Of a DNA stretch of 64,000 bases, positions 7,875 to 55,288 are shown piece after piece. Made by a program: the position numbers and the translations under genes. Origin of the DNA: a virus. The DNA lies in the IMG/VR virus record IMGVR_UViG_3300031707_000006, positions 20,499 through 84,498 of that record; one strand, written 5' to 3'. The notes below the pieces were generated by a model, which was given only the letters and a program-made list of their open reading frames with translations, made no database searches and was not told the origin of the DNA. The stretch's first letter is position 1. The number at the start of each line of letters is the position of its first letter.

Positions 7875-7887
7875 ATTTTCGTCTTAG

Positions 7888-7962
7888 TCGAGGATGTAGA
7901 AATCGAATCTACCTATTGACAATGTATATAAGACATTCGCTTCACCAGCCAGCCCATCCTCG
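7888..7962 (-). tRNA. tRNA-Ile (anticodon UAU)
   Basis: Read on the minus strand the segment folds as a cloverleaf: acceptor stem CGAGGAT/ATCCTCG (7 pairs), a three-pair D stem GCT/AGC, anticodon stem AATGT/ACATT with loop CTTATAT, and T arm GTAGA/TCTAC with loop TTCGATT. The anticodon is UAU, for AUA codons. CCA is not encoded. The variable region is longer than usual (8 bases) and position 8 is G, so the gene is divergent. It lies between the stop of the 77-residue gene and the 33-residue gene, within the same transcript. Confidence 0.75.
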
Positions 7963-33296: not shown

Positions 33297-36050
33297 ATGG
33301 CAATACGAGAGGTAATCACTCAAGGGGATATTCTACTATACGAAATTTTGAGGAATCCCTGTCTTTTTGGAGAGTTTGTTGAAAATATAGATAAACTCCC
33401 TTACGAAGAGGAATTTAGATTCCATGATTATCAGAATGAAATGATTATGGACTTCAGTACCTATGTAAGTTTTTGTACAGGAAGAAGTGTTGGAAAAACA
33501 GTTTCGATAAGTCATTTAATGTCTTGGGCATTAACTTTTAATATCTTTCCCTCTGAGTATCTTGTTTATACTGTACCGGGAAGAGCACATCTAGAGCCTG
33601 TATTTAATGCTTTGGTTAGGTTATTCAGAACCAACTCTTTTCTTAAACATTTTATTGCCTCAAACTCAGGTGTGAATAACTCAGACTTTACAATTCATTT
33701 ATTAAATCAGTCTGATTTATTTTGTAGAATTGCAGGACAAAGCGGTAGTGGTTTACCTGTAGTTGGTTTACACTCTCCATATGAATTCGTGGATGAATGT
33801 GTTGTGGGATCACAACTCGTAAGATGCAAAAACGGGAAAAACCCAATCTCTCATATAAAATCTGGAGATATCGTCATTTCATGGGATGGGGAAAATACTG
33901 TCGAAGATCGAGTTATTTCTACTCAAAAGGTCAAAAAAAATCAAAACGTATTAGAGATAGGATTTGATGGAGGATATATTAGAATTGGAGAACACCATAG
34001 AATATATACAGATGCCGGATATATAGAGGCACATTTACTAAACATTAAAGATAATATTTATCATTCTACAAATTCGATTAGACAACGTTGGACTAAAAAT
34101 GAAATAGATATTGTTAAAAAACGGATTAAAAATTCTGTACCTGTATATGAAATTGCTAAAGAATTGAATCGGACAGAATTAGGAGTTTTTAGAAAAATTA
34201 GTCATCTGGGATTATCAGTAAGAGAGATCTTTGATTCCATTCCTTTAACAGAGGAAGAATTTCAAGTGATTGCGGGATCATTTTTAGGGGATGGATCAGC
34301 ACAAATAGAACCATATAGAGCAAGATATACTACAAATCACAGTTTAAAACAAAAAGAATATGTCGATTGGCTTAGAATAAAGTTAAATAGACTTATAAGG
34401 GTTGAACCAAGGATCTCAAAAAATGGTGGATGGGGGACTTATAATTATTCTTTAAGTACCATAGGCCACCCAACAATCCTAACTCTTGCAAACGAATTGT
34501 ATATTAATGGAAAAAAGACAATTACTCGATATTATTTAGATAGATTAACTCCACTTGGTTTTGCTATTTGGTTTATGGACGATGGATCAGAAAGTGGAAT
34601 GTTATCTACACATTCATTCTCTGAATCTGAAAACGAAATTATAAAACAGTATCTATGGGAAAAATGGGGTATTGAATCGAAAATTTATAAAGACAAGAGA
34701 AAAAGTTTATATTTTATAGTAATTAGAATTAAGTCATTATCCATTCTTAGAAAAATTATTGAACCATATATTCCAGAATGTATGGGATATAAAATAGGAA
34801 AGGGAAAGTATAATAATACACTTCCAGAAATATCTATTATAAAGAATGGAGAAAATAAACAATCCCTAGAGAAAAAAGAAATTACTTATATTAAAAAGAT
34901 TAAATCAACGGCAAGATACTTATATAATATTGAGGTTGAAAATAATCATAATTACTTTATTAATGGAATCCTAACAAAAAATTCGGGCTACTATCCGTAT
35001 CCAACCTTCATTGAATTTAGACCTACCTTTAATAAATGGATGCCAGGATGCAAATTAATTGTATCTGGTGTCCCTACAGGTTTAAGAGAAAATAATGTTT
35101 TATATCACTGTGATCAAGAAGATTCATCTTTCTCAAAACATAGAATCAGTGCAGATGATAATCCAAGATTAACCAAAGAAGATAGAGAACAAGCAATCGT
35201 TGATTATGGTGGAGAAGATTCGGAAGATTTTGAGCATTTGTGGCGGGGCAGACATGGCCGTCCTGTATTTGCACTCTTTGATCGCAGTCTAATGGAAATA
35301 TCTAACTATCCTGTATCTAAATTAGAGATAGATGGAATTAAATTAGCGGATAATATTGCTCTTTATGTTGAGAGATTGTCCCTACTTCCAGGATTACCAC
35401 ATAAAGATTATTCCTGTTTTTTTGGAATAGATCTTGGTTATACGCAACCATCCGCTATTTATGTTCTTTATATAGATAATTATGGAAGAATTAAGTTTCA
35501 TGCCAAAATAAAATTAAGTAAAGTTTCTTATCCTATACAAGAAAGATTAATAGATTATTTAGATTCTAAATATAATCCATTATTCTTAGGAATGGACGAG
35601 GGTTCATCTGGTAAATCAGTAAAACAACATCTTATGGAAGATAAAGAATATTGGCATAAAGATTATGAAAAAAGATTAATACCGATTGATTTCTCATCTT
35701 GGGTTATATTAGGATATGATTCAGAAAAGAAAGAAATTAAAAGTAAAACTAAACCATATGCGACTACCATTCTACAAGAATGGGCAAATAGTCACAAAAT
35801 AATATTTACATCAACTGACCTTGAAACAGTTACAGAACTGGAGAGAATGACGTTTACAAAGAATCCATCTGGAGAAATCGTTTATCGTACCTTAACAGAA
35901 CGTGGGGGTAAACGAGGCGAAGATCACTTCACCGCTGCTTTACTTTGTGCAACAATGGCACATTATATTACTTATGATTCTCTTACTTCAGTTAAACATG
36001 TACAACTTTTTAAAGGTGGTTGGATAGGAAATATAGGGAGACAACTATGA
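33297..36050 (+). CDS. terminase large subunit interrupted by an intein
   Basis: A 917-residue frame; exteins make 522 residues. Walker A is TGRSVGKT (61-68) and Walker B ends FVDE (164-167), where the intein is inserted. The C-terminal nuclease has FGIDLGYT (D712), LGMDEGSSG (D767) and GEDHFTAA (D876). It cuts concatemers and pumps DNA into the prohead. Its ATGA overlap couples it to the portal gene, the normal neighbour. The packaging mode (cos or pac) is not shown by the sequence. Confidence 0.95.
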   Translation: MAIREVITQGDILLYEILRNPCLFGEFVENIDKLPYEEEFRFHDYQNEMIMDFSTYVSFCTGRSVGKTVSISHLMSWALTFNIFPSEYLVYTVPGRAHLEPVFNALVRLFRTNSFLKHFIASNSGVNNSDFTIHLLNQSDLFCRIAGQSGSGLPVVGLHSPYEFVDECVVGSQLVRCKNGKNPISHIKSGDIVISWDGENTVEDRVISTQKVKKNQNVLEIGFDGGYIRIGEHHRIYTDAGYIEAHLLNIKDNIYHSTNSIRQRWTKNEIDIVKKRIKNSVPVYEIAKELNRTELGVFRKISHLGLSVREIFDSIPLTEEEFQVIAGSFLGDGSAQIEPYRARYTTNHSLKQKEYVDWLRIKLNRLIRVEPRISKNGGWGTYNYSLSTIGHPTILTLANELYINGKKTITRYYLDRLTPLGFAIWFMDDGSESGMLSTHSFSESENEIIKQYLWEKWGIESKIYKDKRKSLYFIVIRIKSLSILRKIIEPYIPECMGYKIGKGKYNNTLPEISIIKNGENKQSLEKKEITYIKKIKSTARYLYNIEVENNHNYFINGILTKNSGYYPYPTFIEFRPTFNKWMPGCKLIVSGVPTGLRENNVLYHCDQEDSSFSKHRISADDNPRLTKEDREQAIVDYGGEDSEDFEHLWRGRHGRPVFALFDRSLMEISNYPVSKLEIDGIKLADNIALYVERLSLLPGLPHKDYSCFFGIDLGYTQPSAIYVLYIDNYGRIKFHAKIKLSKVSYPIQERLIDYLDSKYNPLFLGMDEGSSGKSVKQHLMEDKEYWHKDYEKRLIPIDFSSWVILGYDSEKKEIKSKTKPYATTILQEWANSHKIIFTSTDLETVTELERMTFTKNPSGEIVYRTLTERGGKRGEDHFTAALLCATMAHYITYDSLTSVKHVQLFKGGWIGNIGRQL
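33798..34982 (+). mobile_element. Intein with LAGLIDADG endonuclease and extra helix-turn-helix, in terminase
   Basis: A 395-residue intein (168-562). It begins with Cys (CVVGSQLVRCKNGKNPISHI), has GEHHRIYT in the block B position, endonuclease helices AGSFLGDG (326-333) and IWFMDDG (424-430), and ends NYFINGILTKN followed by Ser. Between splicing and endonuclease parts lies a Myb/SANT-like or winged HTH stretch (RWTKNEIDIVKKRIKNSVPV then AKELNRTELGVFRKI). The penultimate residue is Lys, not His. Confidence 0.93.
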
Positions 36051-42980: not shown

Positions 42981-44312
42981 GTGCCAGATGTTAAACTGTA
43001 TTCCAGTCCTGCAATTCCGAATGAAATTCGGCAATATCGAGATACAGGTTGGATTTGGGATGTTACTTTACTTCGTGTATTAGGTAATAATGATGTAATA
43101 ATGATTCGTCGGATGTTTACTCCGATTATTCTAGAAACATCAATAAATCTTATTATTAGTGAATTACTATATTTCTACATTCTTGATCCAATAACTTTAA
43201 TACAACTACATAATTTAATAATTGATACATTAGATCACAGCGAAGTTTTAGATTCTATTCTACTTTCACAAATACATAGTCTTGTAGTAAATGAATTACT
43301 AGATGCATTTTCTATAGATAACATTACTTTAACACAGTTATCTTTATTAATAATAAATGAACTTTTACATTCAGAAACTTTAGATAATTTAGTATTAACT
43401 CAAGCACATAGTTTACTTATTGCTGCATTAGATCATAGTGAAACATTAGATAATTTAACATTAACTCAAGTACATAATATTATTGTAAACGAACTTTTAC
43501 ATAACTATACCATAGATTTATTATTACTATCTCAAGCACATCAACTTGTTGTAAATGAACTTTTACATATATTTACTTTAGACAGTACAAATCTAACACA
43601 AAATCATATCCTGATTGTTAATGATTTAACGCAACAAGAATTATTAGATACAATAAATCTTTTACAAAACCATGTACTGCTGATTAATGAGTTATTAGAA
43701 TCATCTACATTAGATAATCTTACACTAGTACAAAGTTTATTATTAATTGTAAATAATTTATTACATACTCTTTCTATAGAAAATATATCACTATCACAAG
43801 TACATAATTTAAATATCTCAGATATAGTACAAAATTTTTCTATAGATACTTTAAATCTACTTCTTAATCTTCTATTAGTAATTCAAGATTTAACTAATAC
43901 AGAAACTATTGATGGACTTATTCTAGTACAGAATATACAACTTGTACTAAATAAATTACAACATTTATATTCAATAGACAAATTCACTCTATCTCAAGAT
44001 TATGTATTAGCAGTTCAAAAATTAATAAATGATTATCAGTTAGACAATATAACTTTTAATGTACTTATATTATTAATAATTCAAAATATATTAAATCAAC
44101 AAATCCTTGATAATGTCTCCCTTGATTTCTTTATCTCAATAAAACAAAATATTCAAAAGATTATATCAGTACAAAGTAAAACACAAAACATAATATTAAA
44201 ACAAGAAACTATGCAAAGAATTATTAATAAAGTATCAAAAGATAATGTGACAAGGGACATAAAAAAAATAAGGACTAGAATAACTAAAAAATTAAGGATA
44301 AATAAAGCATGA
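42981..44312 (+). CDS. 22-residue repeat protein
   Basis: A 443-residue protein with residues 57-386 built from 15 repeats of exactly 22 residues. The common pattern is L-I/V-I/V-N-E-L-L-H, two variable, T/S-L/I-D-N-L/I, variable, L-T/S-Q, variable, H. The C-terminus (SKDNVTRDIKKIRTRITKKL) is basic. The Leu/Ile-rich units could form a solenoid. Similar spaced repeats (ADNVTLTQH type) occur in structural proteins of other phages. It starts 3 bases after the stop of the preceding gene. Confidence 0.7.
   Translation: MPDVKLYSSPAIPNEIRQYRDTGWIWDVTLLRVLGNNDVIMIRRMFTPIILETSINLIISELLYFYILDPITLIQLHNLIIDTLDHSEVLDSILLSQIHSLVVNELLDAFSIDNITLTQLSLLIINELLHSETLDNLVLTQAHSLLIAALDHSETLDNLTLTQVHNIIVNELLHNYTIDLLLLSQAHQLVVNELLHIFTLDSTNLTQNHILIVNDLTQQELLDTINLLQNHVLLINELLESSTLDNLTLVQSLLLIVNNLLHTLSIENISLSQVHNLNISDIVQNFSIDTLNLLLNLLLVIQDLTNTETIDGLILVQNIQLVLNKLQHLYSIDKFTLSQDYVLAVQKLINDYQLDNITFNVLILLIIQNILNQQILDNVSLDFFISIKQNIQKIISVQSKTQNIILKQETMQRIINKVSKDNVTRDIKKIRTRITKKLRINKA
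43149..44138 (+). repeat. 15 tandem 66-base units
   Basis: The coding DNA for the repeats, 66 bases per unit, runs for 990 bases with no length variation. Units differ by many substitutions, so they diverged after duplication, but the period never changes. Very A+T-rich compared with the preceding gene. Confidence 0.85.
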
Positions 44313-45134: not shown

Positions 45135-46307
45135 ATGATAGAAGGAAAAATTAAATTAATGTTTTATGGGGACGCCACTGTACCCACAGGTTTTGCAAGA
45201 GTATTGCATACAGTGCAAAAATATTTATCTACAGAAATTTATGATTTTTCATGGTTAGGCATAAACTATACTGGAGATCCACACAGTTACCCAATTAGGA
45301 TTTATCCAGCATTTACTAAGGGGGATATTTGGGGGATCAATAGAATAAAAGAAGTGATAGAATTAGAAGATCCCGATGTTCTCTTCTTATTAAATGATGC
45401 ATGGGTTCTTTCTAATATTCTAAATAATATTAAAGAATTAAAACGAATACCACAAATTGTTGTATATTTCCCAGTTGATTCTATGTATTTTGATAGAAAC
45501 TGGTTTAAAAATTATGGGATTGTTTCTAGAGCATTTACATATACTGAATTTGGAAAAAAAGTTGTAGAAGATAGTGGAGCAAATATAAAAATAGAGGTTA
45601 TGCCTCACGGTGTAGACGCCACAACTTTCTATAAAATAGATAAACCAAAACCAGAAATCAAAAAACTAATTTATCCAGATCAACCAGATTTTACAGATTC
45701 ATTTATTTTCTTAAACGCTAATCGGAATCAACCAAGAAAAAGAATAGACACAACCATAGAAGCCTTTGGGAAATTTGTAAAAGATAAACCAACGAATGTG
45801 AAGTTATATCTTCACATGGGATTGCGCGACAGCGGCTGGGATATTAATAGATTAGCAAAACGACATGGTTTAGAAAAAAGAGTGCTAGTCTCCGGTACAA
45901 CTGCACAAATGCCCATGTTAACAGATGAAAAACTAAATCTAGTTTACAACGCCACTGATTGTGGGGTCAACAGTTCAATCGCGGAAGGTTTTGGACTTTG
46001 TAGTATAGAACATGCAGTAACGGGTGCGCCTCAAATTGTAGGTAATCATTCTGCATGTAAAGAACTATTCTCAGATTGTGGTTTAACAGTGGAACCTAAA
46101 TTATGGTTAACGTCTCCAGGAGAAGGGGTAGTTAGTGGTTTTATAAGTTCTGATGATCTTGCTGATGCAATGGAAAAAGTGTATTCGGATAAGGAATTAT
46201 ATACAGAACTTGCAGAAAAAGCCTATAAAAAATTTACTGCACCAGAATGGCAATGGAAAACAATTGCCGGAAGATTCAATGAGATATTCCTGCAAACAGT
46301 AGCGTAA
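45135..46307 (+). CDS. glycosyltransferase family 4-like (GT-B)
   Basis: A 390-residue enzyme. GDATVPTGFARVLHTVQKYL at the start and the C-terminal NATDCGVNSSIAEGFGLCSI with a long EGFG...E motif are those of GT4 enzymes. It is oddly placed among neck genes. The longer frame from 45045 overlaps the connector gene; ATG 45135 with AGGAAAGGAATATAGG upstream is chosen. Confidence 0.85.
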   Translation: MIEGKIKLMFYGDATVPTGFARVLHTVQKYLSTEIYDFSWLGINYTGDPHSYPIRIYPAFTKGDIWGINRIKEVIELEDPDVLFLLNDAWVLSNILNNIKELKRIPQIVVYFPVDSMYFDRNWFKNYGIVSRAFTYTEFGKKVVEDSGANIKIEVMPHGVDATTFYKIDKPKPEIKKLIYPDQPDFTDSFIFLNANRNQPRKRIDTTIEAFGKFVKDKPTNVKLYLHMGLRDSGWDINRLAKRHGLEKRVLVSGTTAQMPMLTDEKLNLVYNATDCGVNSSIAEGFGLCSIEHAVTGAPQIVGNHSACKELFSDCGLTVEPKLWLTSPGEGVVSGFISSDDLADAMEKVYSDKELYTELAEKAYKKFTAPEWQWKTIAGRFNEIFLQTVA

Positions 46308-46756: not shown

Positions 46757-46999
46757 ATGGGAATAATTACACAGAAGGTAGATCTGTTAAATTTAACAGA
46801 CTTAATTTCACGGAAAAACAAAAAATTACAGGCAGTTGCATTAAGTCAAATAGAAAGTTTATTATTAGATCAACCAGAAATCTTTACACAAATTAGAAAA
46901 GTTTATCTGGATTCAATGAATGATTTTGCAAGACTCATATTAACTGCTTTGTATCAAGATGTAGAAAAACCAGAAATGAGTCGGGTCTATAATGGTTGA
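46757..46999 (+). CDS. small helical protein in neck region (80 aa)
   Basis: An 80-residue helical protein of unknown function, beginning 1 base after the stop of the preceding gene and overlapping the next by 8 bases. Its place suggests a structural or chaperone role. Confidence 0.5.
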   Translation: MGIITQKVDLLNLTDLISRKNKKLQAVALSQIESLLLDQPEIFTQIRKVYLDSMNDFARLILTALYQDVEKPEMSRVYNG

Positions 47000-48083
47000 A
47001 ATCAGTGGGTACAATGCTTTTGCACAAGAATCGTCACAAAATGCGATAGAGCGTTTGCGGGGAAGAGTAAATACGGAACGGGGATTAGTGCAAAAGATTG
47101 ATATCGAAACTGAAATAATTGATAAATATATACAAGAACTAACTCAACATAAAACAAGTCAAGATCTTTCACAACGAGCACTTCTAATTGCAATTAGTAA
47201 TATAATGGATCAAGCTAGGATGATTTTATCTAGCGAAGCATTGGAAGCCATAAATCAAACCCAAGAGTTTGATTATCCACCACTAAAAACTGGATTACTA
47301 AGTGCAATAGATAATGAGAATACTTATGAGTATTCACTCAGTACAAGAGGGGAAAACACAACATCAGTTGTGAAAATTAATCTCGATAAAACTGCCGGAA
47401 GATTACAAGATTATGCCAGCGCAGTCAAAAAAGCTAGAACTACTTTATTATCGGGTAGACCCAAATGGCGAAAATTCTTTGCCGGGCCAGCAATGGCATC
47501 TCATTTCTGGAAAGAGAAAATCTATCGCCCTTCTAGAGAGGGCGTTGGTGAGGAGAAATATGCAGATCGGTATCCAGATACGATTGCATTAAGAGTAGGG
47601 TTCTTTAGATCTCCTGCTCCCTGGTGGAGTTTATTAGAATACGGTAACGCACCAGGTAAGATGTCAAGTGATCGTGTGGGGGGCACACCATATCCTTCGT
47701 TTGGCCCAACAGGGTTTGTTAAAAAAGCAGAAGGAAGAATAAACAGATTGATCCGAGGCGAGTTCAACTCTGCAAAAGTAGAGTTACAAACCAAAGTACA
47801 AAAGATCATTGATAAACTATATAATAAAAAAATAAAAATGCTGGAATATGCAAGTAGTTTATCTAGTTCATTACAGACTGATACATTTCAAACAAAAGTC
47901 ATTGCCATAGAAAACTTACTTAAAGGCCAAGTGGCAGGATATGACTATGATCCTGTGAAATTAAAAATACTTGCAGGAAAAATCGCCACTGGGGAGATTA
48001 TACAGGGAAGATATAGAATTGGTGGTGGTACGAGGATAAGGATCAAAATGATTAGTAAACAAATAAGAACTCTTTATGAATAG
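46992..48083 (+). CDS. HK97 gp10-like neck/tail protein, enlarged
   Basis: A 363-residue protein. WWSLLEYGNAPGKMSSDRVG is reminiscent of the HK97 gp10-like fold (here with a long N-terminal extension and helical C-terminus). Coiled-coil helices flank the core. It would join the tail tube to the head-closure ring. Confidence 0.55.
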   Translation: MVEISGYNAFAQESSQNAIERLRGRVNTERGLVQKIDIETEIIDKYIQELTQHKTSQDLSQRALLIAISNIMDQARMILSSEALEAINQTQEFDYPPLKTGLLSAIDNENTYEYSLSTRGENTTSVVKINLDKTAGRLQDYASAVKKARTTLLSGRPKWRKFFAGPAMASHFWKEKIYRPSREGVGEEKYADRYPDTIALRVGFFRSPAPWWSLLEYGNAPGKMSSDRVGGTPYPSFGPTGFVKKAEGRINRLIRGEFNSAKVELQTKVQKIIDKLYNKKIKMLEYASSLSSSLQTDTFQTKVIAIENLLKGQVAGYDYDPVKLKILAGKIATGEIIQGRYRIGGGTRIRIKMISKQIRTLYE

Positions 48084-48097
48084 GAGAATTTAAGAAT

Positions 48098-48596
48098 ATG
48101 GCAGATAGAGATTGTGTAAATAATTTCTACGGGGGAGGATACTAAAATCTATACTGAAAGATTAGAAGATCTATCCTTCTTATACTTTATACAAAATCAA
48201 TTCTTAGATTTTCCAGGTGTAGCTGTTGTAAATGCATTCCCTAAAGTAGATTTAACTACGCCAACCATCTCAGTTGTCGCAAAATCTATCGAACTCTTTC
48301 CTGGGGAACTTGGAAATGCAAAGCAGATGGCTATAAGGACTTGGGATATAGACGTTTTTGCAGAAACCATCACACAAAGAGATGAATTTGCATACCGAAT
48401 TATCAATGCTTTACAATATCCCGTTTCTGTTCTGGATTTTAATATGGGGTTTCCACCAACTGTAACTCCAAGTCAGTTATATTGTTTGAAACCACAAGCT
48501 ATCCGTATGGATAATATAGATGTAGATGCAGAACTTGTAAGTAAATTCTATTATAGAAACTGGGTAAATTATACAGCATATCGAGATAAGTTATAA
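48098..48596 (+). CDS. tail terminator-like protein, frame shifted near its start
   Basis: From ATG 48098 a frame of 15 codons ends at 48145. An open frame without ATG, GTG or TTG runs from 48120 to the ATG at 48327 and continues to 48596, and codes for a coherent protein (IYTERLEDLSFLYFIQNQFL ...). Joined by skipping one G in GGGGG at 48131-48135, the product is 165 residues, the normal size for a tail terminator. Its position, just before the tail tube gene, fits. A +1 frameshift, an extra base in the sequence, or a non-standard start are possible. Confidence 0.6.
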
Positions 48597-48610: not shown

Positions 48611-49813
48611 ATGGCAAGAAGATTAGCAATACCTTCCGAGGACGTACAACTTACAATAGTTGGCCCTACAAACTTCTTCAAAGCCTCAAGAGTTCAAAGA
48701 GTTACGTTCAATGCGGACGTACCTACTACTGATGTATACGAATTAGGTAATAGTTCTCTGGCGGGTACTGTACAGGATGTTCCTAATGTTACTGCTACTT
48801 TTAGTGCATTTGATGTTGGGATTAAAGTGTTTGGTACATTAGCTGGAAAAGATATTACTGCGTTCCCTGCTGCTGGTGCAAGTATTTCAGATCTTGGTGA
48901 AGCCGGTATCGTTGTAGACATACAAGATGCAGTCCTAGATGATTTTGCAAAGGCTGCACACGGTAAAAGATTACAAGTAAGAGACTTCTCATTCAGTTAC
49001 TCAGTAGATGGTGAATCAACAGAAGATTATACTCTGATTGGTTCTAAGAAAAGATGGTTTAAAAATGATGTTCTTGTACAAAGATTTACAGGAGCTGGCC
49101 CATACATCTTAACTTATACACCATTGGTATTAAGGAATGGTGATTACGCTCTCTCTGTGGTTCTTGATGGAGTATATCTTGAAGAACATGCTACTCCCGG
49201 AACAGGACAATATAGTATAAATGCTGGTACTAAAACAGTAACTCTAGGTGACGCATTAAGTGCCCAGATGTTAGTTGTATATGCTACTAATCCTGGTGGA
49301 AGTCCCTGGACAGATGTAAATGATACAACTGTACCCGCAGCAATCAGAGGTAGAGATGTTGTAGTTTCGATCTCTGCTAATGAAATCCCAAGAGTACAAA
49401 ATGTAACCATCAATGGTAACTTGAATGTACAACCAGTAAAAGAAATGGGGGAAAGAGAAATTACTGGTTATCAGGCACAAGTTCCCACTGTTGAGGGTAC
49501 AATTACTGTACTCGATACTGATACCGAATTAATATCTCTATTAACTACTGGCACTATTTCCGGTGCTGGTGTATATGAGTACGAAATCGGTGAACAATGC
49601 CCAACCTCAGGTGTAAGCCTAAAGGTGGAATTACTCGATCCTTGTGATACTACTTCCCCATATGAGATCTTAAAGACTGTATATGTGGATGAGATCATTC
49701 CTACAGGTGAATCATGGACAAGCAATATTAATAATAATGCGAGTCAGACCTTTAACTGGAGAGCAATTCATGCTCACTTAGTTGTGTATGCCGGTAGTGG
49801 CACTTCACACTAA
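48611..49813 (+). CDS. major tail tube protein
   Basis: A 400-residue, beta-rich protein, of typical size and position between tail terminator and tail chaperones. It has repeated beta domains; the C-terminal part (VVVSISANEIPRVQNVTING) resembles an Ig-like extension. It forms the stacked hexamers of the tail. Followed by a strong terminator, as expected for an abundant product. Confidence 0.65.
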   Translation: MARRLAIPSEDVQLTIVGPTNFFKASRVQRVTFNADVPTTDVYELGNSSLAGTVQDVPNVTATFSAFDVGIKVFGTLAGKDITAFPAAGASISDLGEAGIVVDIQDAVLDDFAKAAHGKRLQVRDFSFSYSVDGESTEDYTLIGSKKRWFKNDVLVQRFTGAGPYILTYTPLVLRNGDYALSVVLDGVYLEEHATPGTGQYSINAGTKTVTLGDALSAQMLVVYATNPGGSPWTDVNDTTVPAAIRGRDVVVSISANEIPRVQNVTINGNLNVQPVKEMGEREITGYQAQVPTVEGTITVLDTDTELISLLTTGTISGAGVYEYEIGEQCPTSGVSLKVELLDPCDTTSPYEILKTVYVDEIIPTGESWTSNINNNASQTFNWRAIHAHLVVYAGSGTSH

Positions 49814-49917: not shown

Positions 49918-50640
49918 ATGAATAAGGTAAATCCAATAGAGAGAAATGATGTGGACGTTGCAAAACTTTTTAGATGGAAAAAGGAAGTTACAATTCTGGA
50001 TGAGGACGAAGAACCAATATTAACTGCTTATATTAGATTGGTTGGAGATGCAGATCTAAATAGAGCAAGAGTTTTTGCTATACGCAGTTCAAAAGATTAT
50101 AGAAGAATTCTAAAAGATTTAGATTCAGATGAACGTATTGCATTAATTCCAGAGAAGGATGAATTAACTAAAGATGCGACTATAGATTCTATTGTAATCT
50201 ATTCTATGAGAGACTTTGCTTTAGATGCAAATGATCAAGTTAAAATAAAAGAACCAAAAGAACTTACAAGTATTGCAACTCTCGAAGATCAAGAAGAATT
50301 CCAGGAAGATGTGGATCAATATCCTGAGAATAAAAAAGAAGCCATAGAAAAATACGTAGAAGAAAAAATAGAGGAAAAGAGAAAAGAACTCTCTAAAAGA
50401 GAATTTGATGATATGTATCCTGAGTTAGTAACTAAAATTATTGACCAATATTGTGAAAATAAAATGTTTGAATCATTTAGAGAATACTCGGTATACTTGG
50501 GTGCATATACAGATAAGAAATACACAACTAAATTCTTCAAAAACTTTGAGGAATTTGCAAATCTTCCTACAATCATTAAAGATCAATTTGAATTGGCTTA
50601 TAGTAATTTGGAACTAGGAATAGATGAACTAAAAAACTAG
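49918..50640 (+). CDS. tail assembly chaperone G
   Basis: A 240-residue acidic, helical protein at the usual place between tail tube and tape measure. Its end CTA AAA AAC TAG carries a slippery heptamer so that a part of the ribosomes makes a longer GT protein. It has AGGAG in its ribosome site. The protein helps tape measure and tube assemble. Confidence 0.8.
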   Translation: MNKVNPIERNDVDVAKLFRWKKEVTILDEDEEPILTAYIRLVGDADLNRARVFAIRSSKDYRRILKDLDSDERIALIPEKDELTKDATIDSIVIYSMRDFALDANDQVKIKEPKELTSIATLEDQEEFQEDVDQYPENKKEAIEKYVEEKIEEKRKELSKREFDDMYPELVTKIIDQYCENKMFESFREYSVYLGAYTDKKYTTKFFKNFEEFANLPTIIKDQFELAYSNLELGIDELKN

Positions 50641-50935: not shown

Positions 50936-53900
50936 ATGACAGATGCATTAGATATCCTAAGACAAAAATTAATAGATATTTCCGCACAACTTTCTATAGT
51001 TAATACGAAACTTGGTAATGTAACCCAAGCGAGTATTGCATTTAATCCTGCAATCGGAAGTACGGGTCGTTGGCAAGGTGCAGGAGGAAGAACTATTTCT
51101 GGTGCAGAAATAAACCCCATTAATACTCTTGCTCAAAAAGCTGTATCCCAGGGACTGATGCAGGCCACAGTCCAGATTAGAGAAATGGGGAAACAAGCAG
51201 GGCTTTCTGGTAAAGAAGTTAATGAATTTGTTGGGAGATTAAAAACATTTTCTTCGGCGGACTTGTCTATTGGGACAAGAGATTGGATTAAGGATCTTCA
51301 ACAACTTAATATTGTTCTTAGTTCTACACAAGCAGAACTTCAAGAACTGATTGCACTAAGACAACAACTTAAAGCACCAACTAAAGGAACTCTTCCTACA
51401 ACTGAACCTGCACAACTTCTTGGTACTCCTATTTCAATTCAAGAAATAGATAAAATGCAGGCTCAACTTGAAAAAAGTTTAGGCCCCCAAGAAAAACTCA
51501 AAAAAAATGAGTTAGATTCACAACAACTGGCTAAAGCTAGAACTTTAGATCGCTATAAACAGGCATTTGCAATGTTGGATAAACAAGCTATATCTGTAGG
51601 ATTAGATCCATCTCAAATGAGGATACAAGCTGTTAGCCAATTAGTTACTGGTTATACAACATTTAATGCTACTTTGGGGGAAGTAAATGGGATTGCTCAA
51701 AAGGCGACAGTTACCATAGATCGTTTAGGGAATGCTACTGGAGATTCTCAGAGAAGATTTAGATCTTTTGGTGATGCAGTTAAAAGAGATATGGTTGAAT
51801 TCCTCAAATGGAGTATTGCTGCTGCTGCTATCTATGGTACTTTCCAAAAATTATCTCAATTAGTTGGGGTAATGATTAAGAACCAATCTGAGTTAGCAGA
51901 TATTACTATTGTGCTTGGTAAAGCACAATCAGATACTAATAAAATATTTGCTGATGCTGCGGATATTGCTAATATAACTGGTTCTTCTATTAATGGTGTT
52001 TTAGATGGATATAATCTAGCTTATAGGGCTACAGGGAATTTAGGCACTGCTTCAGAAAAAGCCGCCGTTGCAAATAAATTAATGGCGGACTCTTTAATTC
52101 TATCCAGCCTTTCTGGTATGTCTCAAGCAGAGGCATTAGATGCTTTAGTTGCCTCATTAAAACAAACAGGTTCATCTTTAACAGATGGTACTGCCTTAAT
52201 GGACAAATGGGTAAAAACCACCAGAGTAGCCAATGTTGATTTACAAACGTTAGCTACTGGTTTTGCTATAGTGGGGGATACCGCCGAAGCTGCTGGATTA
52301 AAAGTAGATGAATTAAATGGCCTATTAGCGGCAATTGCTGAAACAGGTATTGCCTCAGGTAAAGAAGTTGCTAATGCAGCCAGAGCGGTTATTTCTGGTT
52401 TTGAAACGGAAACAGCAAAAAAAGCATTAAGTACTTTAGGTATTGCTCTTGAAGATGCTTCTGGGCAAGCTAGAGCCTTTACCAGTATTATGGAAGAACT
52501 TCATGATCTCAGAATAACTGGTATTATTTCTGATCAAGAATTCTCTAAATTAACTTTAGCTTTAGGTGGTGGTTATCGTAGACAGGCTGTTTATTCTACC
52601 TTAATTGAAAACTATAATAGAGTTGGGGAAGTTGCTAAACAATCTGCAAGTGCTTCTGGAGAAGCTGCTGAGGCGTTATCTATTAAACTAAATACAGTAG
52701 AAAAATCTGTTGTAAAATTAGGAAATGCTTTTCAAGTCTTAGCACAAGGTTTAGGGTCTGAAAATGGCGCATTAGCTATGATTAACCTTTTAGTTAAAGC
52801 ATTAACTGGCTTAGTAAAAGTTTCTGGAGAATTTGGGAAATTAGCTGGGGGTACATTAATCCCCGCCCTGGCTACTTTAGGAACAATGTGGGCAATAAGT
52901 GGTAAAAATACAAAAATAGGCCAAATGGGACAAAGTTTTGCTAATCCATTTATTAGCGCTACTGGTGCAATAATCCCTAGTTGGAAACAAATGCCCGGAA
53001 CTTATGGAGAAAAAACTGGACAATTCCTACCTTCAGGCCCATCCAGAGCACAAACTGTTGGCACAAATATGGCAGCACTCACTGGTGGAGTATTATTGGC
53101 AGGTCTTTTACCAACTGTTATGAATACTTTAAATACAGGAAAAGTAGACCTTACAAAAGCTGGTGCTACCTTAGCGGGAGCTACTGCGGGAGGATTGGTT
53201 GGTTTATTAATTGGCCCTGAAGGTGCATTAGTGGGGAGTACAATTGGATCAATGGTTGGAGAAAGTTTTGTATCCTTCTTAGAAGCTAATAAATTGCAAG
53301 TTGCAAATGTATTTAAACAGGTTATCACTACACCAAAAACAGAAGGAGAAATTACTGTTGACCAGGCAAGAGTAAATACTGAAGTGGCATTGAAAATGTC
53401 ATTAGATGGATTAAGAATAGAACTCGGATCGTGGGCGGGTTTAAAAGGAAATGTACAACCTAGAGAAGAAAAGGATAGACTAGCAAAAATGCTGTTTGGC
53501 GAAAAATTCCAAACGGGGGCATATACAAATGAACAAAGTCAGATCATTAAATATGCTGGTTTATTAGAAAAAGGAGGTAGAAAAGATGAGTTAGCAAAAC
53601 TCATAGAGTTGTTACAATCTGCTGGTGGTGTTATGGGCTTGGGGGGCACTGAAGTAATAACTACTGCACAAAAAGAATTTCAAGAGAAATATGCACAATA
53701 CATTAAAGATGTGATTTCTAAAACAAATGTGGAAGTAACTAAAAATTTAGCTACGGGGGATATAACAAAAGCTGCTGCAAATGCTGCTACTTTAGCAATG
53801 TCGGGGTTTAATACTAAATTCGCATTATGGGGTACTACTCTTCGAGATTCATTTTTAAATATGGCAGATCAACAATTCACAGAAATGATTGCGAATATTG

Positions 53901-55288
53901 TTGCTTATTCCCCTACGGATGTACAAGAACAAATTAGTGCCTTTGTAAAAAGTGCTGAAACTGCTAAAGCCTGGGCTATTTTCCTTGATAGTATGGGTAA
54001 GAGTGCTGCTGCTGCAATGGCAAATCAAATTGCTGCAACACAAGTCCAATACGCAGGCCAATTAACTGCATTTGCAAATAAACAAATACTAACTGGAATT
54101 CCTGCTATGCAACAGTTAGATTTAAGTAAATTCGCTACTAAAGATATAGATAAAATCATACAAGGAATAATGCAGAACTATAAGGGGAAACTTACTACTG
54201 AAGCCGCATATGCTCCACAAGATAAATACACAATGGAACGTGTAGAAGCTCTTATGGCAGATTTGCAACCTTTTATGATGCTCACTGAATCAGGATTTAT
54301 AATTAGAGAACTTCCAGCATCTATTACATCCTCATGGGGAGATCTTCTAGAGGAAACTAAGAAACAAACAGGAATTATGGAACTAGGTTTAGGATACCAA
54401 TTGGGGGGAATGACTGCTGCACAATTTGCTTCCATTCAGGGGCAATATGCGGCGATTAGGGGTCAAATATTAGCTAGAGGAGGTACTTCGGAAGAAACCC
54501 CACAATTGGTTATGACAGACGATGGGCAATGGATTTCAGAAAGAAAGGATTGGAAAATTATTCAATATCTCTTAGGTCAAATTGCCGATAATACTAAGAA
54601 ACAACTGGAAGGTATTTATAATATGCCCGAAGGCGCTAACTTTTGGTTCCCATCTTCAGCACTTGCTTCTATTCAAAATGCTGCTGGTGGGGGTGGAATT
54701 ACATTAGATAATCTTCCGGGAGCAATTTCAGCAGGTATTAAAATGGCTGGTACTACTGGCCCCGGTATGGGTATGACAATAAATCCAAATGTCACTAACC
54801 CTATTACGAGTACATGGAATCCTCTTATACCTATGGGGCCATTCCAAAATCCAATCCCTCTAGGGGCAACTAACCAAACTTCTACACCGGGAAGTTGGTT
54901 AGATCAATTATTGAAGCCGGTTGGACCTCCTGCCCCTGAAACAACTTCTAACGAAATGTTTAGTAAAATATTGGACATGTTAACTACATTAAATTCAACC
55001 CTGTTTAAACCATCCTTTACTCCTCCTCCATCTGGTGTAGGTGGTACTCCATTTATGGGCGATCAAGAAAGTTTTGCAAATGCAATTAGTGAGGGGATTG
55101 GTGGAGTTCTTGGTTTAGGGAAAGAAGTTAAATTACCCACTTTAAATACGAAAATAGAACTTATGAGCACAATTCAATTGATTGCCGATGGGAGAACCTT
55201 AGCAAGTGTGGTCGCTCCCTGGTTAGGTGAATTTTTATCTAACTTTAATGGCTCTACTACCTCACAAACTCTTTCGGCTGTAATATAG
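50936..55288 (+). CDS. tape measure protein, TP901-1 type
   Basis: A 1450-residue protein. The core (DALVASLKQTGSSLTDGTAL ... AAIAETGIASGKEVANAARA) matches the phage tail tape measure TP901 domain; hydrophobic segments occur around residues 280-310, 620-660 and 745-775. The protein sets tail length and passes through the tube. At about 0.15 nm per residue, a tail of roughly 200 nm is possible by the usual rule. Confidence 0.93.
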   Translation: MTDALDILRQKLIDISAQLSIVNTKLGNVTQASIAFNPAIGSTGRWQGAGGRTISGAEINPINTLAQKAVSQGLMQATVQIREMGKQAGLSGKEVNEFVGRLKTFSSADLSIGTRDWIKDLQQLNIVLSSTQAELQELIALRQQLKAPTKGTLPTTEPAQLLGTPISIQEIDKMQAQLEKSLGPQEKLKKNELDSQQLAKARTLDRYKQAFAMLDKQAISVGLDPSQMRIQAVSQLVTGYTTFNATLGEVNGIAQKATVTIDRLGNATGDSQRRFRSFGDAVKRDMVEFLKWSIAAAAIYGTFQKLSQLVGVMIKNQSELADITIVLGKAQSDTNKIFADAADIANITGSSINGVLDGYNLAYRATGNLGTASEKAAVANKLMADSLILSSLSGMSQAEALDALVASLKQTGSSLTDGTALMDKWVKTTRVANVDLQTLATGFAIVGDTAEAAGLKVDELNGLLAAIAETGIASGKEVANAARAVISGFETETAKKALSTLGIALEDASGQARAFTSIMEELHDLRITGIISDQEFSKLTLALGGGYRRQAVYSTLIENYNRVGEVAKQSASASGEAAEALSIKLNTVEKSVVKLGNAFQVLAQGLGSENGALAMINLLVKALTGLVKVSGEFGKLAGGTLIPALATLGTMWAISGKNTKIGQMGQSFANPFISATGAIIPSWKQMPGTYGEKTGQFLPSGPSRAQTVGTNMAALTGGVLLAGLLPTVMNTLNTGKVDLTKAGATLAGATAGGLVGLLIGPEGALVGSTIGSMVGESFVSFLEANKLQVANVFKQVITTPKTEGEITVDQARVNTEVALKMSLDGLRIELGSWAGLKGNVQPREEKDRLAKMLFGEKFQTGAYTNEQSQIIKYAGLLEKGGRKDELAKLIELLQSAGGVMGLGGTEVITTAQKEFQEKYAQYIKDVISKTNVEVTKNLATGDITKAAANAATLAMSGFNTKFALWGTTLRDSFLNMADQQFTEMIANIVAYSPTDVQEQISAFVKSAETAKAWAIFLDSMGKSAAAAMANQIAATQVQYAGQLTAFANKQILTGIPAMQQLDLSKFATKDIDKIIQGIMQNYKGKLTTEAAYAPQDKYTMERVEALMADLQPFMMLTESGFIIRELPASITSSWGDLLEETKKQTGIMELGLGYQLGGMTAAQFASIQGQYAAIRGQILARGGTSEETPQLVMTDDGQWISERKDWKIIQYLLGQIADNTKKQLEGIYNMPEGANFWFPSSALASIQNAAGGGGITLDNLPGAISAGIKMAGTTGPGMGMTINPNVTNPITSTWNPLIPMGPFQNPIPLGATNQTSTPGSWLDQLLKPVGPPAPETTSNEMFSKILDMLTTLNSTLFKPSFTPPPSGVGGTPFMGDQESFANAISEGIGGVLGLGKEVKLPTLNTKIELMSTIQLIADGRTLASVVAPWLGEFLSNFNGSTTSQTLSAVI

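What the first reader, a model, noticed from the sequence alone, without database searches (positions are those of the whole stretch)
48098..48596. Tail terminator gene without a normal start: +1 shift at GGGGG
The reading frame from the only ATG stops after 15 codons, while a coherent 200-base stretch upstream of ATG 48327 is open in another frame with no start codon. Skipping one G of five restores a 165-residue protein. This may be a programmed +1 shift, an inactivating base, an assembly error in a homopolymer, or initiation at AUC 8 bases after a perfect GGGGGAGG site.
Basis: seen in the sequence. Interest (0 to 1): 0.55.

Follow-up and report, generated by a model that had tools for sequence, protein, structure and literature searches.

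The report
Phage tail gene starting at AUC
A phage gene that looks broken is probably intact: its tail-capping protein appears to start at the rare codon AUC behind a very strong ribosome-binding site, and related phages repeatedly use equally rare start codons for the same gene, perhaps to keep the protein scarce.

Summary
The open frame encodes a tail terminator: a confident model (pLDDT 91.5) matches T5 p142 and lambda gpU. Of 79 distinct family members, 65 have ATG/GTG/TTG exactly where the window has AUC 48147-48149, 6 start 1-5 codons upstream with ATG, and 8, window included, have AUA/AUU/AUC there with no ordinary start. All 8 sit behind strong Shine-Dalgarno sites. A ninth, AUA, is in two metagenome records. 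Pairs with AUU starts are under purifying selection (dN/dS 0.037-0.149). The trait changes 6-7 times on the trees. No clear second case was seen in the neighbour genes that could be tested. That the weak start keeps this ring protein scarce is inferred. AUH starts are known in bacteria; I saw no phage case in ten searches. Not shown: translation itself. The link of strong sites with weak starts is not significant in a tree-aware test.

The parts
48147..48596 (+). Tail terminator gene, 149 codons, initiation codon ATC (48147-48149), stop TAA
   Evidence: Homologs start at or close to the aligned codon; AF2 model pLDDT 91.5, helix 1 at residues 2-17 counted from the Tyr after ATC; fold matches T5 p142, lambda gpU
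48131..48138 (+). GGGGGAGG Shine-Dalgarno site, 8 nt before ATC
   Evidence: Duplex -11.3 kcal/mol with a 16S tail recalled from E. coli; relative L055 has GGAGGATACTAAA in front of its ATG, the same letters as in front of the window's ATC
48098..48145 (+). Short leader ORF MADRDCVNNFYGGGY, stop TAA ending 1 nt before the ATC; possible translational coupling
   Evidence: L054 and L019 also have a short ATG ORF ending near the start; role inferred
46992..48083 (+). Upstream gene (363 aa), ends TAG 48081-48083
   Evidence: found by an iterated profile in 128 of 129 sources, N-terminus not alignable
48611..49813 (+). Putative tail tube protein gene, ATG start with GGAGG; control for ordinary initiation
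   Evidence: the label rests on gene order and conservation, no family hit

Best explanation
The gene is intact. Ribosomes bind GGGGGAGG and the initiator tRNA starts at AUC 48147-48149, giving a 149-residue tail terminator with N-terminal Met. Supported by comparison: the start position, the intact frame, purifying selection in relatives, and recurrence of AUA/AUU/AUC at the same place. Inferred: AUC initiates weakly and is checked by the host's IF3; a strong Shine-Dalgarno site offsets this; and the net low rate keeps the terminator (one ring per tail) scarce beside the tube protein made from the next gene. Also inferred: the 15-codon leader ORF, whose stop ends 1 nt before AUC, couples the start to upstream translation. 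The confidence given is for initiation at AUC; for the dosage role it is about 0.5.
For: (1) 79 distinct members: 64 ATG, 4 GTG, 3 TTG and 8 AUH starts. 73 of 79 have their start codon exactly at the aligned place. The 8 AUH are window ATC, L054 ATC, L028, L037, L038, L098 and L099 ATT, and L019 ATA; none has a canonical start from the upstream in-frame stop through the next 10 codons. (2) L028 and L038 have no in-frame ATG and their first GTG is at codon 28 or 16; L054 has no ATG and its first GTG is at codon 51. (3) Separate metagenome records agree: L019/L031 identical over 5167 nt; L028/L037 99.2% identical, both ATT; L129/L131 identical over 7192 nt, both ATA. (4) Purifying selection between AUU-start pairs: 19 synonymous to 3 non-synonymous changes (L098/L099), omega 0.037; 0.065 and 0.149 for L028/L037 and L028/L038. 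(5) AUH against other starts: 7 changes on a 78-row tree, 6 on a 77-row one; the tight clade L025/L028/L029/L038 has TTG/ATT/GTG/ATT and no ATG. (6) AUH members have a mean Shine-Dalgarno energy of -11.0 against -6.7 kcal/mol for ATG members. ATG members have weaker sites than the tube gene beside them (-6.67 against -10.0, 62 loci, p 5.5e-11). (7) Structure: the residue after AUC aligns with residue 2 of T5 p142. (8) Precedent: staphylococcal AUU/AUA starts with extended sites give about 10% of AUG expression in poor medium (PMC13009471, passages); IF3 represses such starts (PMC5472188, passages).
Against: No protein, ribosome-profiling or read data. The window protein is at most 45% identical to any relative, so no near relative tests the GGGGG or the leader. 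Six members (L011, L026, L046, L050, L087, L097) start 1-5 codons upstream of this place, so it is not absolutely fixed. The layout TAGGAG-spacer-ATG at 48081-48100 resembles relatives that start at that ATG (L010, L012, L022), and the leader ORF has a fair Shine-Dalgarno energy of its own (-7.3). All energies use a 16S tail recalled from E. coli; the host is unknown. On well-supported independent pairs the link of weak start with strong site goes one way in about 3 and the other way in 0 (thresholds -8.5 and -9), p 0.25; at -9.5 the non-ATG comparison gives about 3 to 1, p 0.625. Low dosage is not measured.
Confidence: 0.86

Rival explanations
1. Programmed +1 frameshift: ribosomes start at ATG 48098 and a Gly-tRNA slips forward one base on GGGGG, giving a 165-residue protein.
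For: GGGGG allows re-pairing of a Gly anticodon; the ATG has a fair Shine-Dalgarno site (-7.3) and a leader stop 4 codons after the first Gly codon of the run. A phage tail gene with a programmed +1 shift is known: SPP1 gp17.1* (PMC6316719, passages).
Against: None of the other 78 members shows such a two-frame layout with a G run. The SPP1 site has a rare codon overlapping the stop; here neither a stop nor an obvious hungry codon is in the A site. The 16 extra residues have no counterpart, and helix 1 begins right after the AUC. A ready GGAGG-8nt-AUC site would be coincidence.
Confidence: 0.05
2. Assembly or sequencing error in the G run; the real genome has one frame from ATG 48098.
For: Homopolymer; no reads available; upstream stop-TAGGAG layout resembles relatives that start there with ATG (L010, L012, L022).
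Against: The window has 40 G or C runs of 5 or more, one of them (six Gs at 47678) inside the intact upstream gene. The same start anomaly recurs in 8 other relatives without a run of five Gs at the start.
Confidence: 0.05
3. Dead or dying gene: a mutated start codon in a degenerate lineage.
For: The window protein sits on a long branch (1.48).
Against: Open to the end, confident fold, conserved motifs; relatives with AUH starts are under purifying selection. All members without a canonical start have AUH; none has AAG, ACG, AGG or CUG in its place.
Confidence: 0.02
4. Compatible with the best explanation, not exclusive of it: initiation at AUC happens mainly by re-initiation of ribosomes that have just translated the leader ORF; the weak codon is a coupling device rather than a dosage device.
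For: Leader TAA ends 1 nt before AUC; in the other AUH members the stop of an upstream gene or short ORF lies 4-15 nt before the start (L019, L028, L037, L098, L099, L129) or 10-19 nt past it (L054, L038).
Against: Close stops are common in phage operons, so this is not specific; a strong Shine-Dalgarno site also serves direct initiation.
Confidence: 0.3

Closest known systems
infC (IF3) of bacteria: AUU in E. coli, AUC in Streptomyces, AUA in S. aureus
   Same: AUH initiation codon; in S. aureus an extended Shine-Dalgarno site as well (PMC5472188 and PMC13009471, passages)
   Different: Cellular gene with feedback on its own start; here a phage structural gene without such a loop
cvfC1 (AUU), ccpN and citZ (AUA) of S. 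aureus
   Same: AUU/AUA start, for cvfC1 and ccpN with extended SD; reporters about 10% of AUG in poor medium, ccpN up to 30% in rich (PMC13009471, passages)
   Different: Chromosomal genes; in cvfC1 and ccpN the unusual start is described as conserved, here it alternates with AUG, GUG and UUG among relatives
pcnB (AUU) of E. coli and IS911 (AUU)
   Same: AUU initiation (titles seen in reference lists only)
   Different: IS911 combines it with a programmed frameshift in a mobile element (title); no phage structural protein
sigR of Streptomyces (GTC start)
   Same: A non-canonical start limits one of two partner proteins, repressed by IF3 (PMC5472188, passages)
   Different: Different codon, host gene
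Tail terminators T5 p142, lambda gpU
   Same: Fold
   Different: About 10-15% identity; no unusual start recalled for them (recall, not checked)

Membership tests
Phage tail terminator proteins (T5 p142 / lambda gpU) | Tail-terminator fold | tested here: met
   AF2 pLDDT 91.5; Foldseek 8bcp_A E 3.4e-6, 3fzb_A E 6.2e-5; VIA Z 12.9 for 8bcu_A over 138 residues
Phage tail terminator proteins (T5 p142 / lambda gpU) | Gene lies upstream of the G/T-type pair and the tape measure gene | tested here: met
   G-like 49918-50640 with a -1 heptamer, tape measure 50936-55288 by PHROGs; the tube label in between is inferred
Phage tail terminator proteins (T5 p142 / lambda gpU) | Hexameric ring at the tail end | not testable with these tools
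   No virion data
Genes initiated at AUH codons | AUH at the first codon of a conserved protein, no canonical start available | tested here: met
Genes initiated at AUH codons | Strong Shine-Dalgarno site at proper spacing | tested here: met
   -11.3 kcal/mol with an E. coli-type 16S tail, 8-nt spacer
Genes initiated at AUH codons | Initiation observed, reduced and IF3-sensitive | not testable with these tools
   Needs peptides and reporters
Programmed +1 frameshift genes | Two-frame layout conserved among relatives | tested here: not met
   0 of the other 78 distinct members show the window's layout; no close relative was available
Programmed +1 frameshift genes | Shifted product detected | not testable with these tools
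   Needs mass spectrometry

The most novel reading that the evidence does not exclude
In a large uncultured phage family the tail terminator is held at a set low synthesis rate by translation initiation, and lineages reach that rate by two interchangeable routes: AUG with a weak ribosome-binding site, or AUA/AUU/AUC (also GUG/UUG) with a very strong one. The AUH route puts tail completion under the host's IF3, and in the window adds a 15-codon leader ORF that hands ribosomes to the AUC.
Probability: 0.35. Interest if true: 0.75.

Novelty: new variant of a known kind. Interest (0 to 1): 0.62.

Why it matters
Few non-canonical starts have been characterised experimentally, and gene prediction assumes ATG, GTG and TTG (PMC5472188, passages), although proteomics reports over 60 non-canonical initiation codons in Deinococcus deserti (cited in PMC9523058, passage). 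Here one phage structural gene appears to use AUA, AUU and AUC repeatedly, so a caller limited to the usual starts would truncate or miss it. The family offers a natural series (AUG, GUG, UUG, AUA, AUU, AUC at one site) for measuring how start codon and ribosome-binding site trade off under selection. It also warns that 'broken' phage genes in metagenomes may be intact.

Tried and rejected
Close kin by DNA in GenBank phages: none; by protein: none for the window or L012 terminator, and one 24% match for the tube gene. PHROGs and Pfam: no family for the terminator at the cut-offs used. A degenerate exact pattern for the window's own N-terminus found no other viral contig. A phage-encoded initiator tRNA with a matching anticodon: not found. 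The window has tRNA-Arg(UCU) and a weak tRNA-Ile(UAU) whose anticodon stem lacks the three G-C pairs of initiators (that hallmark is recalled); the first 20,000 bases of the record have none, nor have 9 loci of AUH relatives, which are fragments.

Other AUH starts: a scan of 138 of 139 held loci (L001, a copy of window DNA, skipped; redundant, both strands, about 905 kb) gave 23 distinct sites at -8.5 kcal/mol or lower. The 11 on the plus strand are the start codons of 7 AUH terminators, two in-frame sites inside those genes, one upstream of the ATG of L017, and one in the G-T fusion part of L008. The 12 on the minus strand, ORFs of 60-94 codons, each lie under a longer open frame of the plus strand.

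Neighbour genes: gp147 68 of 68 aligned starts canonical (8 N-termini not aligned); tube 77 of 77 (1 not aligned); gp80 71 of 74, the 3 misses having an ATG 11-20 codons further up; G-like 63 of 69, the 6 misses having a Met as fifth residue (5 not aligned). In the separate tube count, L046 had no canonical start within -6 to +4 codons; not resolved. Glycosyltransferase: 44 canonical, 2 without, 34 not aligned; of the 2, L028 has a Met as fifth residue and L119 did not look like a true N-terminus. Connector: 5 canonical, 18 not aligned. Upstream gene: 127 of 127 not aligned, so untested.

mRNA folding around the start (-30 to +20) is not weaker for AUH (mean -4.9, 9 members) than for ATG (-3.6, 64), so accessibility does not explain them. 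Second codon TAY in 8 of 8 AUH but 17 of 57 ATG starts: not corrected for kinship, left open. The last pattern scan selected for AUH-Tyr, so its two new loci are not part of the 79. Papers: ten searches showed me no phage gene with an AUH start; I saw listings, and passages of nine papers; subscription journals are mostly not held.

Full report
WHAT IS THERE. The window is part of an 84,498-base IMG/VR virus record. ATG 48098 opens 15 codons ending in TAA 48143-48145. A second frame, open from 48120 to the TAA at 48594-48596, carries a coherent protein but no ATG, GTG or TTG until ATG 48327. GGGGGAGG (48131-48138) stands 8 bases before ATC 48147-48149.

WHAT THE PROTEIN IS. Relatives were collected by protein search from IMG/VR. 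A model built on 77 aligned sequences is confident (mean pLDDT 91.5, pTM 0.85). Its best solved matches are neck or tail-terminator proteins: by Foldseek DT57C (8hqo_a), T5 p142 (8bcp_A E 3.4e-6) and lambda gpU; by VIA-align the phiCD508 neck (9gb5_H Z 13.5) and T5 p142 (8bcu_A Z 12.9, 138 residues, 3.7 A). The next genes are a conserved protein taken as the tail tube from gene order, a G/T-type pair and the tape measure protein. Helix 1 covers residues 2-17 counted from the Tyr after ATC, and that Tyr aligns with residue 2 of T5 p142. So the protein is complete if it starts at ATC, and would lack helix 1 and the first two strands if it started at Met 48327.

WHERE RELATIVES START. The profile found the gene in all of the 128 loci then held except L013 and L085; these gave 79 distinct members with the window. 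Counting the best start within 7 codons: 64 ATG, 4 GTG, 3 TTG, 8 AUH. At the exact place of the window's ATC, 65 have ATG, GTG or TTG, 8 have AUH, and 6 (L011, L026, L046, L050, L087, L097) have another codon and an ATG 1-5 codons upstream. The 8 AUH members have no canonical start at all between the upstream in-frame stop and the tenth codon after it: window ATC, L054 ATC, L028, L037, L038, L098, L099 ATT, L019 ATA. In L028, L037, L019, L098 and L099 an in-frame stop lies 4-7 codons upstream; in L038 and L054 it is 15 and 23 codons, in the window 10. The ORFs of L028, L037, L038 and L054 hold no ATG at all. A last pattern scan, which selects for AUH-Tyr and so is not counted in the 79, added L129 and L131, identical over 7192 nt in two metagenome records, with ATA behind AAAGGAGGG and a stop 7 codons upstream. 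L019/L031 and L028/L037 likewise repeat their AUH start in separate records. Relative L055 has GGAGGATACTAAA followed by ATG (two codons upstream of the aligned place); the window has the same thirteen letters followed by ATC.

THE GENES ARE ALIVE. Between L098 and L099 (both ATT) there are 19 synonymous and 3 non-synonymous changes, omega 0.037; L028/L037 gives 0.065 (only 5 changes) and L028/L038 0.149. On a 78-row tree (148 columns, several weak forks) AUH against other starts needs 7 changes, ATG against all else 11; an earlier quick tree of 77 rows gave 6 and 9. The tight clade L025, L028, L029, L038 has TTG, ATT, GTG, ATT. Weak starts exchanged for other weak starts fit selection for a low rate better than decay; that is inference.

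IS IT ONLY THIS GENE. Among aligned neighbours, gp147 has 68 of 68 and the tube gene 77 of 77 canonical starts; gp80 lacks one near the aligned start in 3 of 74 and the G-like gene in 6 of 69, explained by a different N-terminal length. A second count of the tube gene left L046 without a start near the aligned place, unresolved. N-termini of the upstream gene could not be aligned, so that gene is untested. A scan for AUH behind a strong site in the held loci found, on the coding strand, nothing outside the terminator gene except one site in the G-T fusion part of L008. In the window ATC 48147 is the only one.

THE RIBOSOME-BINDING SITE. Duplex energy with an E. coli-type 16S tail (recalled; the host is unknown) averages -11.0 kcal/mol for the 8 AUH members, -9.9 for 7 GTG/TTG and -6.7 for 64 ATG. 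In 62 loci with an ATG terminator the site is weaker than that of the tube gene in the same locus (-6.67 against -10.0; p 5.5e-11); in the 8 AUH loci it is about as strong (-11.04 against -10.38). Rows are related, so these p-values overstate. On independent well-supported pairs the trend goes one way in about 3 and the other way in none at thresholds -8.5 and -9, too few to reach significance; at -9.5 the non-ATG comparison has one contrary pair. The trade-off is suggested, not proven.

HOW IT PROBABLY WORKS. GGGGGAGG recruits the 30S subunit, initiator tRNA pairs with the first two bases of AUC, and initiation is slow and subject to rejection by IF3 (inferred). Staphylococcal AUU and AUA starts give about a tenth of AUG expression in poor medium (PMC13009471, passages read), and IF3 represses non-canonical starts (PMC5472188, passages read). 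A tail needs one terminator ring but hundreds of tube subunits (established knowledge; hundreds of tube copies also in PMC6316719, passage), so a low rate makes sense. The leader ORF in the window ends 1 nt before AUC; L019 (MSLGG) and L054 (MYLDVPGIYQIKEGVPSI) have similar short ORFs. A stop close to the start is seen in all AUH members, so coupling is plausible; in E. coli excess IF3 lowers re-initiation, less so when a Shine-Dalgarno site is present (PMC2268962, passages read).

ALTERNATIVES. A programmed +1 shift, an assembly error and a dead gene each could explain the window alone, but none explains why the same position carries ATA, ATT or ATC in relatives with no G run. They cannot be excluded for the window itself without reads or peptides, because its protein is at most 45% identical to any relative.

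NOVELTY. Known kind: AUH initiation (infC, pcnB, IS911, cvfC1, ccpN). New here, as far as the ten searches went: a phage structural gene, recurrent and interchangeable use within one gene family, and pairing with unusually strong sites.

Noticed in passing
window 50631-50637: A AAA AAC heptamer just before the stop (TAG 50638-50640) of the G-like gene; the T-like part continues an open frame, and 30 of 70 counted relatives have no canonical start for it while residues such as W-S-x-S-K-A are kept upstream: a classical -1 frameshift of the gpG/gpGT type, so the TTG 50685 ORF is probably not a separate gene.
   Followed up: partly
window 45135-46307: A group 1 glycosyltransferase gene (PF00534, E 1.1e-11) lies inside the head-tail module, and similar genes are in the same place in L003, L011 and L012.
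   Followed up: partly
window 33297-36050: A 917-aa ORF with HINT/intein matches and a LAGLIDADG endonuclease (PF03161, E 1.9e-32): an intein, probably in the large terminase (that host protein is a guess from position).
   Followed up: no
window 42981-44312: 443-aa ORF of diverged repeats of the type LDNLTLTQ-LLINELLH, no Pfam family at E 0.01; TRF finds only a 44-base array near its end.
   Followed up: no
window 7887-7962 (-): ARAGORN calls a tRNA-Ile with UAU anticodon that Rfam does not reach at its gathering score, near a clear tRNA-Arg(UCU).
   Followed up: partly
second codon of AUH-start terminators: Tyr (TAT/TAC) follows the start in 8 of 8 AUH members but in 17 of 57 ATG members; could be kinship or could help weak initiation.
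   Followed up: no
L046, tube gene: The tube gene of L046 has no ATG/GTG/TTG within -6 to +4 codons of the aligned start; start not resolved.
   Followed up: partly
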